Below are positions 1-43,355 of a stretch of 43,355 nucleotides of DNA, piece by piece; positions within the stretch are counted from its first letter, which is position 1, and each line of letters opens with the position of its first letter. The translations under genes were made by a program, and so were the position numbers. Location: positions 1-43,355 of IMG/VR virus record IMGVR_UViG_3300045996_000618. One strand, given 5' to 3'. This DNA comes from a virus. A model generated the notes under the pieces. It ran no database searches. It was not told the DNA's origin and saw nothing but the letters and a program-made list of their open reading frames with translations.

Positions 1-1
1 T

Positions 2-205
2 GTCTTTCGCGCTCAAAACCTTCCCAACCTGTTGGTTGCGCAGAAGCTTGGCCGCGACAGCTTCGGCGCCAGGGTGCGGATACGGCCGCCGAAGGGCACC
101 CCGGAATTTGCATGGTATCGCAAGGTGGCGCTGCATCTCGGCATCGATGCTGCGCATGCGCTGCCAATTAAGTCGGCCGAGACAGATCGAGCGGGGGCGC
201 CATGA
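2..205 (+). CDS. C-terminal fragment of a protein on the variant branch
   Basis: This frame is open from the left edge and stops at 203-205. Its last 11 residues (from KSAE) lie in the 127-bp repeat and are identical to the end of the gene at 43079-43264. The preceding residues, including PPKGTPEFAWYRKVALHLG, are unrelated to that gene. I read it as the end of an alternative gene in a related phage or subpopulation, joined at the repeat. It has no start here and no recognised family. It may also be an assembly overhang. Confidence 0.4.
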   Translation, partial: VFRAQNLPNLLVAQKLGRDSFGARVRIRPPKGTPEFAWYRKVALHLGIDAAHALPIKSAETDRAGAP

Positions 206-4819: not shown

Positions 4820-4903
4820 ATATAAAACGCCCGTAAAATCAACGTTTTCACCGCCTGTGTTCTTGCAAAGTTCTCACCGATGGAGTAGACCAGAAACGCC
4901 AAA

Positions 4904-4924
4904 GGGCTCAACCAGAGCGAGCCC
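4904..4924. repeat. Hairpin after the methyltransferase gene
   Basis: GGGCTC at 4904-4909 pairs with GAGCCC at 4919-4924; the stem extends outward with one bulge (AA/TT). There is no T-run on either side, so it is not a convincing intrinsic terminator. Confidence 0.4.
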
Positions 4925-5006
4925 CTTGGGAAGCGGATGTAGTTACCAGCTACGAGCCGCTTCGATGGTCGAGCCATCCATAACCGGTTAAAGGGTTATA
5001 GGCTAA

Positions 5007-5363
5007 ATGGACTCGCTATTCAACCCGCATGCTGGCCAGGAACGCGACCGCCGCAGTCAAATAGGGTCGCAAGAGACCGGCCGGGAACTTACCCCGACCG
5101 TCCCCGGAGGCCATGCGAAGGGGAGCAACTGCGCCGCCCGTAAAAGGGCATCATCCCAGAGGCCGTCGTTACGGCGGAGGGCGAGAAGGCCACTCGTTAA
5201 AATACGCAGCGCAGCTATCGCCGGTCATGAATGGACAGTGAGCTTTCACGCTGAAGGCTCCGAGCATCGTCTGATCCCTGAACCCAAGCTTGAGGGAGGG
5301 ATTAGCGGGGTGCGGGGTATGCCTAGAGATCCACGCCCCCAAGTCACGGAGGAGCACAGATGA
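5007..5363 (+). CDS. Doubtful hypothetical ORF
   Basis: A 118-codon open frame from ATG 5007. Codon use is poor for this genome (many AGG, AGA, CGG, ATA), although the C-terminal part (about residues 77-118) reads more naturally. The frame may be open by chance, or the region may be a degraded gene. The stop overlaps the start of the 19-residue ORF at 5360. Confidence 0.22.
   Translation: MDSLFNPHAGQERDRRSQIGSQETGRELTPTVPGGHAKGSNCAARKRASSQRPSLRRRARRPLVKIRSAAIAGHEWTVSFHAEGSEHRLIPEPKLEGGISGVRGMPRDPRPQVTEEHR
5341..5359 (+). repeat. 19-nt leader repeat, copy 1 (contains ribosome binding site)
   Basis: The 19 bases aagtcacggaggagcacag occur here and again at 5709-5727. Each copy holds a strong GGAGGAG Shine-Dalgarno and lies directly before a start codon (ATG at 5360 and at 5731). 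Confidence 0.8.
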
Positions 5364-5419
5364 GCGGAGATCAAGTATTTGATGCTGTGCAAATGCAAGT
5401 GAGAGGAGAGCGAACATGA
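5360..5419 (+). CDS. Possible 19-residue leader peptide
   Basis: ATG at 5360 directly follows a strong GGAGGAG. The frame encodes only 19 residues (MSGDQVFDAVQMQVRGERT) and ends in an ATGA overlap with the start of the gene at 5416. It may be a leader that couples translation of the next gene, or a remnant. No homology claimed. Confidence 0.4.
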   Translation: MSGDQVFDAVQMQVRGERT

Positions 5420-5583
5420 GTGAGAGAGATTTGCTAATCGAATTGCTGGCATGGCGCTTATTCGAGGCCGGCGATCCGCTCACGACATGGCGTCGGTTGG
5501 GCGAAGAGGGGCGAGAGACGTGGCGCCAGAAAGTGCGCCGCGCCGACCAGCCGCGTGGCCTTTACCCCAAAGATGACCAATAG
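5416..5583 (+). CDS. Small hypothetical protein
   Basis: 55 residues starting MSERDLLIELLAWRLFEAGD, with GGAGAG just upstream of ATG 5416. Helical and highly charged (TWRRLGEEGRETWRQKVRRA). No family is recognised; composition and the ribosome binding site support a real gene. Confidence 0.65.
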   Translation: MSERDLLIELLAWRLFEAGDPLTTWRRLGEEGRETWRQKVRRADQPRGLYPKDDQ

Positions 5584-5610: not shown

Positions 5611-5679
5611 GGCGGCACGAAAGGAATCGAACCTTCTTGGGATGCAATGGCACCAGCTTTCCAACCGCCCCGTGCCGCC
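5611..5679 (-). ncRNA. tRNA-like element A
   Basis: Read on the minus strand, 69 nt fold as a tRNA-like cloverleaf: a perfect 9-bp closing stem (GGCGGCACG / CGTGCCGCC), a short D-like arm with TTGG in the loop, a 5-bp central stem GGTGC / GCATC closed by a 4-nt loop (CATT), and a T-arm GAAGG-TTCGATT-CCTTT. The T-loop is canonical. A working tRNA has a 7-nt anticodon loop, so this cannot decode in the normal way. No CCA is encoded. A second copy lies at 32250-32317 with a compensatory change in the T-stem. It could be a tRNA mimic, a decayed tRNA, or an attachment-related sequence. Confidence 0.6.
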
Positions 5680-5708
5680 GACGCGCAACATAGCAGACAG
5701 TCCCGATG

Positions 5709-5727
5709 AAGTCACGGAGGAGCACAG
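5709..5727 (+). repeat. 19-nt leader repeat, copy 2
   Basis: Second exact copy of the repeat at 5341-5359, placed three bases before ATG 5731 and supplying its GGAGGAG. Confidence 0.8.
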
Positions 5728-5730
5728 GCC

Positions 5731-6198
5731 ATGACCTCCCTCACTATCGAGAAGGGCGGGAAGCGCCGCCCATGGAAGCTCGCCGCTGCCGATGACCACC
5801 ACATCCGAACGTTCCACGCTGAGGGAAAGTCCGACGCTGACCTGGCCTACATCCTAAACCGCTCCCTCAGTGCAATCTGCCGCCGCCGCAAGGTGCTCGG
5901 CCTCAAGCGCAACGTCAAATCCGGGGCAAAGAAAGGCGAGTACAAGCATACGGAGGAGGCAAAGGCCAAGATTGGCGCCGCAGCCTCCAAGCGCTGGCAG
6001 ACGGACGAGGGCTATCGCGTCAGCACCCTTGCGTCACTGCAGCAAGGACGCAAAGCCAGCAAGTACAATGGCTGGCATATCCCGACCGACCCCGAGATCC
6101 GCCGGTATTACTTCAAGGTCCGCAAGCTATTCAGGTCGAATTACGCCCGCGCTGCCGTTGCGGAAGTAATGTCTAAAGAGGCTTCCCCTGTAGGGTAG
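5731..6198 (+). CDS. HTH and NUMOD-like DNA-binding protein
   Basis: 155 residues. An HTH-like segment at about residues 26-56 (HAEGKSDADLAYILNRSLSA then ICRRRKVLGLKR) is the Myb/GcrA-like 'trip-helical' pattern. It is followed by HTEEAKAKIGAAASKRW, a NUMOD3-like motif normally seen as a DNA-contact module of homing endonucleases. No nuclease motif is visible. It lies directly before the terminase genes, so a regulator or a packaging-related DNA-binding protein is possible. Confidence 0.65.
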   Translation: MTSLTIEKGGKRRPWKLAAADDHHIRTFHAEGKSDADLAYILNRSLSAICRRRKVLGLKRNVKSGAKKGEYKHTEEAKAKIGAAASKRWQTDEGYRVSTLASLQQGRKASKYNGWHIPTDPEIRRYYFKVRKLFRSNYARAAVAEVMSKEASPVG

Positions 6199-6284: not shown

Positions 6285-6581
6285 ATGGCAGGGCGTCCTC
6301 GCGGAGCCTGGGCCAATAAAGCGTGGCGCGATGCGCTGCGTTTGGCTGTTCTGCGTGAGGTCGATTGGGACGAGAAGCCCAAGACCAAACTGGATGAACT
6401 GGCGGATTCGCTCATCACGGCGGCGAAGGGCGGAGACATCTCTGCATTGAAGGAACTGGGCGATCGGCTCGACGGCAAACCAGCCCAGGCCATCGTGGGT
6501 GGGGACGATGACGATCCTGCCGTGCGCGTAATCACAGAGATCAGGCGTTCCATTGTCGATCCTCGACATACGGACGGCTAG
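6285..6581 (+). CDS. Terminase small subunit (putative)
   Basis: 98 residues starting MAGRPRGAWANKAWRDALRL at ATG 6285; a TTG at 6270 is in frame but lacks a spaced ribosome binding site. The N-terminal AGRPRGAWANKAWRDAL followed by LADSLITAAKGGDISALKEL and DRLDGKPAQAI is the pattern of DUF5681-type small terminases. Such proteins bind the packaging start site and recruit the large subunit. It directly precedes and overlaps terL, which supports the call. Confidence 0.75.
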   Translation: MAGRPRGAWANKAWRDALRLAVLREVDWDEKPKTKLDELADSLITAAKGGDISALKELGDRLDGKPAQAIVGGDDDDPAVRVITEIRRSIVDPRHTDG

Positions 6582-7851
6582 GGTGTTCCAGCCCTTGCTC
6601 GCCCCCGCGCGCTACAAGGCTGCCTTTGGTGGCCGTGGCAGCGGCAAGTCGCATTTCTTCGCGGACCTGCTGATTGACGACAGCATGCGCAACAAGGGGC
6701 TGCGCTCTGTCTGCATCCGTGAAGTCCAGAAAAGCCTGAAGGAGTCCGCCAAGCGCCTGATCGAGGACAAACTGGCAGAACACCGGCTGGGTGAGGCTGA
6801 CGGCTTCAAGGTGTTCAGCGACGTTATCAAGACGCCTGGAGATGGCCTGACCACGTTCCAGGGCATGCAGGACCACACGGCCGAGTCCATCAAATCTCTG
6901 GAGGGCTACAAGCGTGCCTGGTGTGAAGAAGCGCAAAGCCTGTCCGCAAGATCCCTTTCCCTCCTGCGGCCTACCATCCGAGCAGAAGGCTCTGAGATTT
7001 GGTTCTCCTGGAACCCGCGTCGAAAGACTGATCCCGTCGATGCCATGCTGCGGGGTGAGAGTCTGCCAACCGGCGCAATGGTGGTTAGAGCCAACTGGAG
7101 CGACAACCCTTGGTTCCCTAGCGTCTTGGAACAAGAGCGCCAAGACTGCCTGAGGGACGACCCCGACCAGTATCCGCACATCTGGGAAGGCGACTACGCC
7201 ACGGTGCTGGCTGGGGCCTACTACGCCCGCCACTTGGCCGAGGCTCGCGCACAGGGCCGCATTGGCAGGGTAGCGGCCGACCCGCTGATGACCATCCGCC
7301 TGTTCTGCGACATCGGCGGGACGGGCAGGCAAGCGGACGCCTTCACCATCTGGGCCGCTCAGTTCATTGGCCGCGAGATCCGGGTGTTGAACTACTACGA
7401 GGCTGTTGGCCAACCGATAGGCGCGCACCTCGAATGGTGCAGGACGCAGGGCTACACGCCCGCTCGTGCCCAGTTCTGGCTGCCTCACGACGGCGACAGC
7501 AACGACAAGGTCTTTGACGTTAGCTACGCCTCTGCGCTGAGGGCTGCGGGCTATTCTGTGGAAGTTGTGCCAAACCAGGGCAAGGGCGCTGCGATGAACC
7601 GCGTAGAGGCCGCGCGCCGCCGGTTTCCCATGGTGTGGTTCAACGAGGCCACGACGCAGGCCGGCTTGGATGCGCTGGGCTGGTATCACGAGAAGCGTGA
7701 CGAGGCGCGGAATGTGGGCTTGGGGCCTGATCACGACTGGTCGAGCCACGGCGCCGACTCGTATGGCCTGATGTGCGTGGTCTACGAAGAGCCGATCGTC
7801 AAAGAGGCGGAAGAGCGTCACGTCCCCGTTGGTAGCTGGATGGCCGTGTAG
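6553..7851 (+). CDS. Terminase large subunit
   Basis: 432 residues from TTG 6553, overlapping the small subunit by 29 bases. Walker A is GGRGSGKS at residues 26-33, and the Walker B/catalytic acid region is WCEEAQS at about 123-129. The C-terminal RNase H-fold nuclease has acidic residues in LFCDIGGTG (Asp 253), HDGDSND (from 312) and HDWSSHGADS (from 394). This is the PBSX/Terminase_3-like class. It is an ATP-driven motor and nuclease that cuts concatemers and fills the procapsid through the portal. Slightly shorter than the P22 protein. Confidence 0.95.
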   Translation: MSILDIRTARVFQPLLAPARYKAAFGGRGSGKSHFFADLLIDDSMRNKGLRSVCIREVQKSLKESAKRLIEDKLAEHRLGEADGFKVFSDVIKTPGDGLTTFQGMQDHTAESIKSLEGYKRAWCEEAQSLSARSLSLLRPTIRAEGSEIWFSWNPRRKTDPVDAMLRGESLPTGAMVVRANWSDNPWFPSVLEQERQDCLRDDPDQYPHIWEGDYATVLAGAYYARHLAEARAQGRIGRVAADPLMTIRLFCDIGGTGRQADAFTIWAAQFIGREIRVLNYYEAVGQPIGAHLEWCRTQGYTPARAQFWLPHDGDSNDKVFDVSYASALRAAGYSVEVVPNQGKGAAMNRVEAARRRFPMVWFNEATTQAGLDALGWYHEKRDEARNVGLGPDHDWSSHGADSYGLMCVVYEEPIVKEAEERHVPVGSWMAV

Positions 7852-29845: not shown

Positions 29846-29915
29846 AGCAGCGGCCCCTGAGCACGCGGACACGTACCCAGGGACCTGACCACCAACCCGC
29901 CCAAGGAGCGGATCA

Positions 29916-30338
29916 ATGGCTGAGATGACGATAGGAGACTGCAAAAAGGCCGTCAGTGCGATTCTACACGTCGCGGCGGCAATCTTTGTGATCTCAGCGT
30001 GGTTTTTGCCACAGACGGCATTCGCGCAGAGCGGCGCGCACGGAGACGGGCATGCAGAGCACCATGATTGGTACAAGGATCTCAAGCAGCCCGGCACGGG
30101 ATTCTCGTGCTGCAACGGCGACAGTGTGGACGCCGATGGCAACCCGCGCGAGGGCGACTGCCGGCCGACACGAGCGGACCTGCGCGAGGATGGCTGGTGG
30201 GCCGTTATCAACGGGCATTGGACCCGCGTTCCGGCCAGTGCGGTGCTGAAGGAGCAGGCGGCCGATGGTCGGTCCCATATCTGCGCCGGGAAGTCGGGCT
30301 TCATCTATTGCTTCCTCGCCGGAAGCCCAAAAATCTGA
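29916..30338 (+). CDS. Secreted Cys-containing hypothetical protein
   Basis: 140 residues, with AAGGAG 9 bases before ATG 29916. N-terminal hydrophobic helix (about 13-36, SAILHVAAAIFVISAWFLP) with AFAQ suggests a cleaved signal. The mature part has HDWYKDLKQPGTGFSCCNGD and later HICAGKSGFIYCF, probably two disulphides. This type recurs in alphaproteobacteria and their phages without an assigned function. Position just before lysis genes suggests a periplasmic role. Confidence 0.7.
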   Translation: MAEMTIGDCKKAVSAILHVAAAIFVISAWFLPQTAFAQSGAHGDGHAEHHDWYKDLKQPGTGFSCCNGDSVDADGNPREGDCRPTRADLREDGWWAVINGHWTRVPASAVLKEQAADGRSHICAGKSGFIYCFLAGSPKI

Positions 30339-31804: not shown

Positions 31805-31922
31805 CTTCTGCGACAACGCCAAGCCGATCTATTTCGACGTGGCCGACAAGATGACCCGCCAGACAGAAAAGGCGATCATCGTGCACAATGAAAAGGGCGC
31901 GGCGCTCTGTGGGTGGAAGTAA
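31719..31922 (+). CDS. Outer-membrane spanin lipoprotein (Rz1-like)
   Basis: 67 residues starting 86 bases inside the inner-spanin gene in another frame and ending 118 bases beyond it. Signal MKQNAWLIALAMVSLTSC has the lipobox LTSC with Cys 18. The mature part is short (KPIYFDVADKMTRQTEKAII). The overlapping arrangement is the classical Rz/Rz1 pattern, which supports both calls. Confidence 0.88.
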   Translation: MKQNAWLIALAMVSLTSCAGSGRGPAPNSFCDNAKPIYFDVADKMTRQTEKAIIVHNEKGAALCGWK

Positions 31923-32249
31923 CTACGGGCCGGGCTTGATACCGACTGATTGCGCACCGGGTGCCGCGCCGTCTCTACGCCGCCCTCGGTCGCACAATCT
32001 CTTCAGGGCGACCGGCTGAGAAGCGGTCCTCGGGTGTAACGTGTCCTTCCACGCCGCCGTAGCACTGTGCATTCTACCAGAACAAACACGGGCGGCAATA
32101 CGCGATACGAAGTGCGCTATCCCGCTCTCTGACAGGGTGCGCTAGTAGGGCAGTACCCACTGTTCAGGCAGATGAGGAAGATGGAGAAGGGGTAGGGGTG
32201 CCTTTGGGTCGCGCTTCACCGCCTGAGTTTATTCTGTTATAGATGCCGC
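31923..32249. other. Gene-free convergent region after the lysis genes
   Basis: No credible frame on either strand. Late rightward transcription ends here and early leftward transcription from 40.6 kb arrives from the other side. Short inverted repeats exist (GACCG / CGGTC around a nine-base loop near 32009), but no stem followed by a T-run is clear enough to call a terminator. The right end runs into the second tRNA-like element. Confidence 0.5.
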
Positions 32250-32317
32250 GCGGCTCGGGGCGTTTGGAACGCTGGTGCCCTTTGCATCCCAAGATGGTTC
32301 GATCCCATTCGCGCCGC
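32250..32317 (+). ncRNA. tRNA-like element B
   Basis: 68 nt on the plus strand with the same plan as the element at 5611-5679: closing stem GCGGCTCG / CGCGCCGC (one T-C mismatch), D-like arm GCGT-TTGGA-ACGC with four pairs, the identical central stem GGTGC / GCATC but a 5-nt loop (CCTTT), linker CCAA, and T-arm GATGG-TTCGATC-CCATT. Against copy A the third T-stem pair is T-A instead of A-T, a compensatory change. The anticodon loop is too short for decoding. It lies 0.7 kb downstream of the integrase gene, so an attP role is an alternative. Confidence 0.6.
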
Positions 32318-32326
32318 TCTTCATTC

Positions 32327-33009: not shown

Positions 33010-33993
33010 CTAGAGCCTCGCTGCGATTTCGGCTGCCGTCTCTCGGTAATATGCGTTCTGCAGGATGCGCAGATCCTTGTGGCCGCTGATGCGCGCGAGG
33101 GTGAGCACGTCGACCTTACGGGCCAACCGTGTCAGGGCCTCGGCGCGAGAGTCGTGGAAGTGCAGGTCTTCTATCATAAGACGGTCGCGGGCCTTGCGGA
33201 ACATGGTGTCCAGTACGGCCGACGAGATAGAGAAGCATCGCGCTCGAGCGGCAATCGGCGTCAGCAGCCGGATGGCGTTCCGGGTGAGCGGCACGTCTCG
33301 CGGTCGACCAGTGATGTGCTGCGTCTTGTGCGCCACCGAGGCGACGCGGCGCTGGAGGTTCAGGGTCTTCCTGCCAAGGCTCAGTATCTCGCCGGCACGC
33401 ATGGCCGACCGCAGGGCCACCATGAAGGCTAGCGCGACCTCCTGATTGCGTGTCTCCGGGGCTAGGCCAGCCCTGTAGCCGAGGTTCCGGCATAGAGCCC
33501 TGACCTCCTTGGGCGATACCCTGCGCGTCCTGGGGGTGGGCTGGCGCGGTATCCGCATGCCCTTGAGCGGGTTGTGGCTCATCCACTTCCATTCCTCGCG
33601 GGCGAGGCGCAAGGCATGCCGGAACCAACTGAGTTGCCGCAGGATCGTAGCGTCAGACACCTTGCGGAGGCGGGCATCGCGCCACTCGGCCATATCCGGC
33701 GTGTCGATGTCTGCCAGCTTCTTGGCAACCAGCTTGGGGAAGTCCCGCAGCATGGCCGTCGCCTGCCGATCCTCGTGCTGCCCACCCTTCTTCTTGGGTA
33801 TCACGTCGCGCTGGTAGCGCTCGATCAGGTCGCGCAGCGTGTGCCTGGTGGCCGGCGATTCCTCCAGCTCGGTTTCCTTCGCTGTCGCCCAGCCTTGGGC
33901 CTCGCGCATGGTGCGGAAGGTCTGCGACGCCCGTTGCCCTCCCACGTAGACTTGCGCTCGGTAGCCGCCCTTGTATTTGCCGATCGACGCCAT
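33010..33993 (-). CDS. int: Tyrosine integrase
   Basis: 327 residues from ATG 33993. N-terminal arm-binding-like beta part (GGYRAQVYVGGQRASQTF), a core-binding helical domain (about 50-135), then the catalytic domain with Arg 199 (SAMRAGEIL), a candidate Lys 223, His 280 and Arg 283 (HDSR), His 305 (SGHKD) and the Tyr nucleophile in NAYYRE (about 315). It performs site-specific integration and excision. It is preceded by an excisionase-like gene in the same direction. The frame is open further upstream, but that part reads as noncoding. Confidence 0.95.
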   Translation of the reverse strand: MASIGKYKGGYRAQVYVGGQRASQTFRTMREAQGWATAKETELEESPATRHTLRDLIERYQRDVIPKKKGGQHEDRQATAMLRDFPKLVAKKLADIDTPDMAEWRDARLRKVSDATILRQLSWFRHALRLAREEWKWMSHNPLKGMRIPRQPTPRTRRVSPKEVRALCRNLGYRAGLAPETRNQEVALAFMVALRSAMRAGEILSLGRKTLNLQRRVASVAHKTQHITGRPRDVPLTRNAIRLLTPIAARARCFSISSAVLDTMFRKARDRLMIEDLHFHDSRAEALTRLARKVDVLTLARISGHKDLRILQNAYYRETAAEIAARL

Positions 33994-34220
33994 GCCATCC
34001 CCCGTGCGTAGTGCCGTGGGGAGATAGTGGGGAATCGGGGTGTGGAAAGTCGAGTCCTGCGGGTAAAATGGTGGAAACGCAAGGTGCGCCGGAAGGCCGT
34101 TGGTGCTATATTTACCCACCCTTCGCCGTCTTGTGCGGTAAAGACGGGAAACGCCCGTGGTGCCCGCTGCTGGACTCGCAAAGGCAAATGAAATGGGCAC
34201 TTGTTGGCTCCCGTGCGTAA
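33994..34220. other. Gap between excisionase-like gene and integrase; attP candidate region
   Basis: 227 bases without a gene. It holds a small hairpin (ACGGG / CCCGT around 34144-34157) and a longer-range inverted pair GTGCCC / GGGCAC (about 34160 and 34196). The AT-richer stretch around 34120 could be a promoter or IHF-type site. Phage attachment sites often lie here, but no repeat proves it. Confidence 0.3.
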
Positions 34221-34442
34221 TTATTGGGGAGCCCGGACCGCGTCGACATCCTCGATCGGCAGGTAGCCACACCGATTGAGCTTCAGGTGGCCAGCGCGGA
34301 TGTAGTTGTAGATCGTCTTGCGGCTGACGCCCAGCATTTCCGCCGCCTGCTGCTGCGTGACCTGCGTCGGGCGTGGGTGCTTGTCAGCGTAGAGCTGCAC
34401 AGCCTGGAGGGCGATCTGTAGCCTTTCGTCGGCGTCGCTCAT
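34221..34442 (-). CDS. Excisionase-like HTH protein
   Basis: 73 residues, ATG 34442 overlapping the upstream stop. The C-terminal half is an HTH_17/MerR-like winged helix: VTQQQAAEMLGVSRKTIYNY then IRAGHLKLNRCGYLPIEDVD. The N-terminal part is a short helix. Phage excisionases use this fold and sit just upstream of int, as here. It could also be a transcription regulator. Confidence 0.75.
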   Translation of the reverse strand: MSDADERLQIALQAVQLYADKHPRPTQVTQQQAAEMLGVSRKTIYNYIRAGHLKLNRCGYLPIEDVDAVRAPQ

Positions 34443-43082: not shown

Positions 43083-43264
43083 GAGGCCCACACACCCCCG
43101 AGACGCGCGAGAAGATGCGCCAAGCCATGAAGGCCAAGTGGAGCGACCCCGCCTACCGCGCCGCCAACTTGCGTCATGTGTTGGCCGCGCAACGACAGAG
43201 CGTGGTGAACTTCTGGCGAGCCGCGCAGAAGTCGGCCGAGACAGATCGAGCGGGGGCGCCATGA
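43079..43264 (+). CDS. Small NUMOD-like DNA-binding protein
   Basis: 61 residues from GTG 43079, overlapping the DnaA-like stop. TPETREKMRQAMKAKWSDPA is a NUMOD3-like motif, similar to the one in the protein at 5731. The last 11 residues lie in the 127-bp repeat and are shared with the variant frame at the left end. Function unknown; DNA contact is likely. Confidence 0.6.
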   Translation: MRGPHTPETREKMRQAMKAKWSDPAYRAANLRHVLAAQRQSVVNFWRAAQKSAETDRAGAP

Positions 43265-43355
43265 ACCCGTCCCGGCCGCACGCCGCTCCCCAAAAGCGAC
43301 GTGAACTTGATCACGTTTCCCGCGCTGCCCGACGCCCCCTCCCAATTGTCGGCAG
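43229..43355. repeat. 127-bp direct repeat, right copy
   Basis: Identical to 170-296 and ending exactly at the window edge. Joining the two copies closes the genome at about 43,059 bp and links the early rightward operon (to 43264) to the genes from 503 onward. Confidence 0.9.

What the first reader, a model, noticed from the sequence alone, without database searches (positions are those of the whole stretch)
5611..5679. tRNA-like element A with a 4-nt 'anticodon' loop
The minus strand folds into a tRNA-like cloverleaf with a perfect 9-bp closing stem, a canonical T-arm (loop TTCGATT) and a 5-bp central stem with only four loop bases. Functional tRNAs need seven. It is not part of any gene and points against the surrounding transcription. 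It could be a tRNA mimic (aminoacylation decoy, RNase P substrate, replication or packaging signal) or a tRNA remnant.
Basis: partly seen in the sequence, partly recalled or inferred. Interest (0 to 1): 0.7.

Follow-up and report, generated by a model that had tools for sequence, protein, structure and literature searches.

The report
Two tRNA-shaped, non-decoding phage RNA genes
A bacterial virus carries two copies of a small gene whose RNA should fold like a transfer RNA but whose anticodon loop is too short to read codons; each copy has its own likely promoter, so it is probably an expressed tRNA imitation or a fading relic of a viral tRNA rather than a working tRNA.

Summary
Window 5611-5679 (-) can form a tRNA cloverleaf: 9-bp acceptor, 3-4-bp D-arm with GG in its loop, 5-bp central stem with a 4-nt loop, 4-nt variable loop, 5-bp T-arm with loop TTCGATT. 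A second copy (B) lies at 32249-32318 (+), about 86% identical, with a 5-nt central loop. Similarity ends at the edges of the cloverleaf; the flanks are unrelated. A tRNA-shape scan scores the copies 34.6 and 33.9; the best of 5.2 Mb of shuffled DNA scored 27.0. Both lack CCA, U8 and a 7-nt anticodon loop, and ARAGORN and Rfam at its cut-offs do not call them. Each has an extended -10 promoter-like site that puts the predicted RNA start within one or two bases of the acceptor stem. The phage is a temperate ~43.06-kb circle, also present in a Microvirga MAG. No homologues were found in about 840 Rhizobiales genomes or the viral records searched. Unrelated odd-loop tRNA-like elements occur in related phages. 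Best reading: a tRNA-derived, promoter-driven, non-decoding RNA. Mimicry of host tRNA-binding factors, perhaps an uncleavable competitor of tRNA-cutting defences, is inferred. Main rival: decaying phage pseudo-tRNAs.

The parts
5611..5679 (-). tRNA-like element A (4-nt central loop CAUU, 9-bp acceptor stem, no CCA)
5687..5715 (-). promoter-like site of A: GTGACT (5710-5715), 17 nt, TATGTT (5687-5692) preceded by TG (extended -10); predicted start at the first base of A
   Evidence: score in the top 0.035% of positions in the window; top 0.4% of intergenic positions; below the threshold of the generic scan
32249..32318 (+). tRNA-like element B, second copy (5-nt central loop CCUUU; one U.C mismatch in the acceptor stem)
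32215..32243 (+). promoter-like site of B: TTCACC (32215-32220), 17 nt, TATAGA (32238-32243) preceded by TG; predicted start 32250
   Evidence: top 0.1% of positions; top 0.85% of intergenic positions; below the threshold of the generic scan
33010..34272 (-). tyrosine integrase gene (context of B, ~690 bp away)
6553..7851 (+). terminase large subunit gene (context of A, ~870 bp away)

Best explanation
A and B are two diverged copies of a small tRNA-derived RNA gene of a temperate phage. Each is transcribed on its own, from an extended -10 promoter that starts the RNA at the first base of the acceptor stem (shown as sequence, transcription inferred). The RNA keeps the parts that tRNA-handling machinery recognises: the acceptor/T stack, the T-loop TTCGA and the GG of the D-loop that together make the elbow. 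It has lost what a decoding tRNA needs: a 7-nt anticodon loop with U33, U8, and an encoded CCA (shown). It therefore cannot decode, and works, if it works, as a mimic that engages a host tRNA-binding factor through elbow and stem (inferred). The most attractive target is a tRNA-cutting defence enzyme, for which a tRNA body without a cleavable anticodon loop would be an uncleavable competitor; RNase P, RNase Z or CCA-adding enzyme are alternatives (speculative). Confidence is for 'expressed, maintained, non-decoding tRNA-like RNA', not for the target.
For: Architecture far beyond chance in both copies. Similarity stops at the structural edges: element ~86% identical, flanks not above shuffles (p 0.88 upstream, 0.98 downstream), as expected if the RNA unit is what is conserved. 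Independent promoter-like sites place the start within one or two bases of the 5' end in both copies. D-loop GG, T-loop TTCGA, central stem and variable loop CCAA are unchanged between copies, and one T-stem pair changes compensatorily (host tRNA-Gly(CCC), the most similar cellular tRNA to the A+B model, has G-C there). Elbow recognition by RNase P, RNase Z and CCA-adding enzyme, and viral mimics of it, are reviewed in PMC4810234. Phage tRNAs with anticodon-loop changes against tRNA-cutting defences: PMC10264068, PMC11555353.
Against: Only two copies, in one phage; no homologue by the A+B model in 49 related viral records, 48 Microvirga genomes, 397 family and 397 order genomes, or 21 integrase-neighbour loci. 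Pair retention is only modestly better than neutral change (p 0.002 to 0.23 by model). B has a mismatch in its acceptor stem. No RNA data. The promoter match was noticed before it was tested, neither site reaches the generic scan's threshold, and no terminator was found.
Confidence: 0.5

Rival explanations
1. Decaying pseudo-tRNAs: the phage once carried a functional tRNA (closest to tRNA-Gly or tRNA-Lys), which was duplicated and is losing function, starting with the anticodon loop; no present role.
For: Related phages carry ordinary tRNAs in the same place, e.g. tRNA-Gly(TCC) in L089 ~540 bp upstream of TerL, and odd-loop elements occur in L003, L207 and L317. Among cellular tRNAs the A+B model best hits tRNA-Gly(CCC) (30-34 bits). 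The T-arm of B shares 16 exact bases with Microvirga tRNA-Lys(UUU).
Against: All four arms are kept in both copies, promoter-like sites sit at both 5' ends, and differences do not pile up in stems as broken pairs (though the statistics of that are modest).
Confidence: 0.33
2. Attachment site or DNA element: B is attP (tRNA-type) near the integrase, or A and B are recombination, packaging or replication sites read as DNA.
For: Tyrosine integrase 690 bp from B; integration in tRNA genes with cores as short as 8-17 bp is known (PMC10865867); 16-bp word shared by B and Microvirga tRNA-Lys. A lies upstream of the terminase genes.
Against: tRNA-type attP sites carry a 3' tRNA half ending in CCA, as elements of related phages G042 and G011 appear to. 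A and B have D-arms and 5' acceptor halves and no CCA, and A is nowhere near int. No long identity to any of 27 tRNA genes of the MAG.
Confidence: 0.1
3. Unusual but decoding tRNA: either D-armless with the first hairpin as anticodon arm (loop UUUGGAA/GUUGGAA, anticodon UGG) and the second as a long variable arm, or B with a 4-bp stem and 7-nt loop (CUU).
Against: Linker lengths (1-2, 0-1, 4 nt) and the D-loop GG fit an ordinary class I cloverleaf; no D-armless bacterial tRNAs are known to me; A is not called in ARAGORN's standard or mitochondrial mode; no CCA; C33 in B's second reading.
Confidence: 0.07

Closest known systems
Phage-encoded tRNAs with altered anticodon loops (PMC10264068; PMC11555353)
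   Same: tRNA-shaped RNA gene in a phage; anticodon loop departs from host sequence
   Different: those are called as tRNAs and are held to decode; A and B have 4-5-nt loops, no CCA, no U8
tRNA-dependent lysogeny tRNAs of temperate actinobacteriophages (PMC10865867)
   Same: temperate phage with tyrosine integrase and tRNA-type gene (B lies near int)
   Different: those tRNAs are functional isoacceptors; A and B cannot replace one
vtRNAs of murid herpesvirus 4 (PMC2888160)
   Same: several tRNA-like genes in a DNA virus
   Different: unrelated virus, pol III promoters, miRNA processing; no sequence relation claimed
Viral tRNA-like structures with elbow mimicry, such as TYMV (PMC4810234)
   Same: acceptor/T-arm and elbow mimicry
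   Different: parts of RNA genomes; A and B are genes in a dsDNA phage

Membership tests
Functional bacterial tRNA | 7-nt anticodon loop with U33 | tested here: not met
   loops CAUU (A), CCUUU (B)
Functional bacterial tRNA | ARAGORN / Rfam RF00005 call | tested here: not met
   best Rfam hit tRNA-Sec 25 bits, cut-off 47
Functional bacterial tRNA | T-arm with TTCRA loop, D-loop GG, acceptor stack | tested here: met
Functional bacterial tRNA | U8 and encoded CCA | tested here: not met
   G at position 8, no CCA encoded; CCA addition after transcription not testable here
tRNA-type attP site | 3' half of a host tRNA, ending in CCA, long identity | tested here: not met
   longest shared word 16 nt, no CCA; contrast G042/G011. 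The true host is uncertain
tRNA mimic RNA (expressed, non-decoding) | own transcription | tested here: inconclusive
   promoter-like sites at both 5' ends; no RNA data
tRNA mimic RNA (expressed, non-decoding) | binding to a tRNA-handling factor | not testable with these tools
   needs biochemistry
Conserved structured RNA family | covarying homologues | tested here: inconclusive
   two copies, one compensatory pair; no homologues found

The most novel reading that the evidence does not exclude
Temperate phages of this group repeatedly turn tRNA genes into promoter-driven, non-decoding tRNA mimics with collapsed (4-5 nt) or swollen (12-14 nt) anticodon loops and extended acceptor stems (A, B, L003, L207, perhaps L317), used as uncleavable competitors of tRNA-cutting defence enzymes or as regulators of tRNA processing.
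Probability: 0.15. Interest if true: 0.75.

Novelty: new variant of a known kind. Interest (0 to 1): 0.45.

Why it matters
Phage tRNAs are now seen as counter-defence and lysogeny factors. A tRNA body kept without an anticodon loop would separate decoding from other roles and give a directly testable candidate for an RNA inhibitor of tRNA-cutting immunity. Standard tRNA finders miss such genes.

Tried and rejected
Rfam at gathering and permissive thresholds: only tRNA-Sec at 25 bits. DNA patterns of the conserved core in IMG/VR: none. blastn and megablast against phages: none. Relatives of the neighbouring 155-aa gene: none. A+B model weak hits in Microvirga: canonical tRNA-Lys or unconvincing matches. 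Strict attP reading: rejected for lack of CCA and 3'-half identity. Homology of A and B promoters or flanks: rejected, flank similarity is at chance, so the promoter likeness is of type only. Energy z-scores: uninformative. Intrinsic terminators after A and B: none found. Literature searches for phage tRNA-like RNAs with unusual anticodon loops: no matching paper in the held library.

Full report
Observation. The minus strand of 5611-5679 reads GGCGGCACG GG GCG GUUGGAAA GCU GGUGC CAUU GCAUC CCAA GAAGG UUCGAUU CCUUU CGUGCCGCC. A second copy B lies at 32249-32318 on the plus strand. ARAGORN and Rfam at curated cut-offs call neither; the best sub-threshold Rfam match for A is tRNA-Sec, 25 bits, probably because of the long acceptor stem.

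Chance. Folding energy is no argument (z -1.92 and -0.27; for A a rod is 1.7 kcal/mol better). A descriptor of tRNA architecture with free central-loop length is. A scores 34.6 and B 33.9, host class I tRNAs mostly 38-43, and in 5.2 Mb of shuffled sequence one hit reached 26 (27.0).

Geometry. Linkers fit a class I tRNA: two bases after the acceptor, one before the central stem, a 4-nt variable loop. The D-loop has GG followed by A. Departures: G for U8, central loop of 4 (A) or 5 (B) nt, no CCA, acceptor stem of 9 bp in A and 8 positions with one mismatch in B. A D-armless class II reading (first loop as anticodon UGG) is possible but fits the linkers less well.

Context. The window is a temperate phage: TerL 6553-7851, portal, head, Erf, repressor, tyrosine integrase 33010-34272. 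The same phage is contig JAJFBI010000001.1 in a Microvirga MAG, 100% identical over the mapped segments and circularly permuted, implying a circle of ~43,059 bp; whether Microvirga is the true host is not shown. A lies between a 55-aa gene (5416-5583) and a 155-aa gene (5731-6198) on the other strand. B lies in the gap where plus-strand late genes meet minus-strand genes.

Transcription. Upstream of A on its strand: GTGACT-17-TATGTT with TG before the -10. Upstream of B: TTCACC-17-TATAGA with TG before the -10. The implied starts are at or next to the first base of each element. Under a simple sigma-70 score A ranks in the top 0.035% and B in the top 0.1% of window positions; restricted to intergenic positions, 0.4% and 0.85%. 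Caveats: the motif was seen first and tested after, neither site reaches the threshold of the generic scan, and the host's promoter preferences are assumed.

Evolution. A and B differ at 10 of 69 aligned positions plus one loop insertion. One T-stem pair changes on both sides, A-U to U-A, with G-C there in tRNA-Gly(CCC). Retention of pairs is modestly above neutral in simulation: p 0.04, 0.002 or 0.23 by model. The flanks are at chance similarity, so the conserved unit coincides with the cloverleaf. The closest cellular relatives of the A+B model are tRNA-Gly(CCC), 30-34 bits in many Rhizobiales; the T-arm of B is closest to tRNA-Lys(UUU). The parent is unresolved.

Relatives. No A/B homologue in 49 related viral records, 48 Microvirga genomes, 397 family and 397 order genomes, or 21 integrase-neighbour loci. 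The A+B model was not run on every locus fetched; the others were scanned with the shape descriptor. Other tRNA-like elements of the phage group: L207 6270-6363, downstream of a 67%-identical integrase, RF00005 27.9 bits, 12-nt central loop, ~15-bp acceptor with one mismatch; L003 139-220, upstream of TerL, 14-nt loop, 10-bp acceptor (one shuffled stretch scored slightly higher on that relaxed test, so this one is weaker); L317 506, tRNA-Gly-like with a 6- or 8-nt loop and CCA. Canonical tRNAs also occur, including tRNA-Gly(TCC) upstream of TerL in L089. 3' tRNA halves with CCA, of the attP type, are seen in G042 and G011 and look different from A and B.

Reading. I favour an expressed, non-decoding tRNA-derived RNA (0.5) over decaying pseudo-tRNAs (0.33), a DNA or att element (0.1) and an odd decoding tRNA (0.07). 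Shown: architecture, second copy, absence of decoding features, promoter-like sites. Inferred: transcription, elbow formation, engagement of a host factor. Speculative: competition with tRNA-cutting defences. Literature used: PMC10264068, PMC11555353, PMC10865867, PMC4810234, PMC2888160.

Noticed in passing
window 1-169 and 170-296 / 43229-43355: 127-bp exact end repeat (typical of an assembly k-mer) that starts at 170; bases 1-169 are absent from the identical MAG contig, so they look like an assembly branch and the phage is a ~43,059-bp circle.
   Followed up: partly
window 5341-5359 and 5709-5727: Exact 19-bp direct repeat AAGTCACGGAGGAGCACAG, each copy just upstream of an ATG (5360, 5731) and containing a Shine-Dalgarno-like GGAGGAG; element A lies between them and its -35-like site overlaps the second copy.
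   Followed up: partly
window 4820-5360 and 31810-32240: Long gaps with little clear coding next to A and B; folds only slightly better than shuffles (z -1.14 and -1.63).
   Followed up: partly
L207:6270-6363: tRNA-like element (RF00005 27.9 bits) with a 12-nt anticodon-region loop and very long acceptor stem ~85 bp downstream of an integrase gene.
   Followed up: partly
L003:139-220: tRNA-like element with a 14-nt loop upstream of TerL, itself enclosed by an inverted repeat GAGACGGC/GCCGTCTC.
   Followed up: partly
L317:506-580: tRNA-Gly-like gene with CCA but a 6- or 8-nt anticodon loop; ARAGORN calls it tRNA-???.
   Followed up: no
window 29851-29923: Sub-threshold Rfam match to Plasmid_R1162 antisense RNA (30.7 bits, cut-off 55) in the late region; probably chance.
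   Followed up: no
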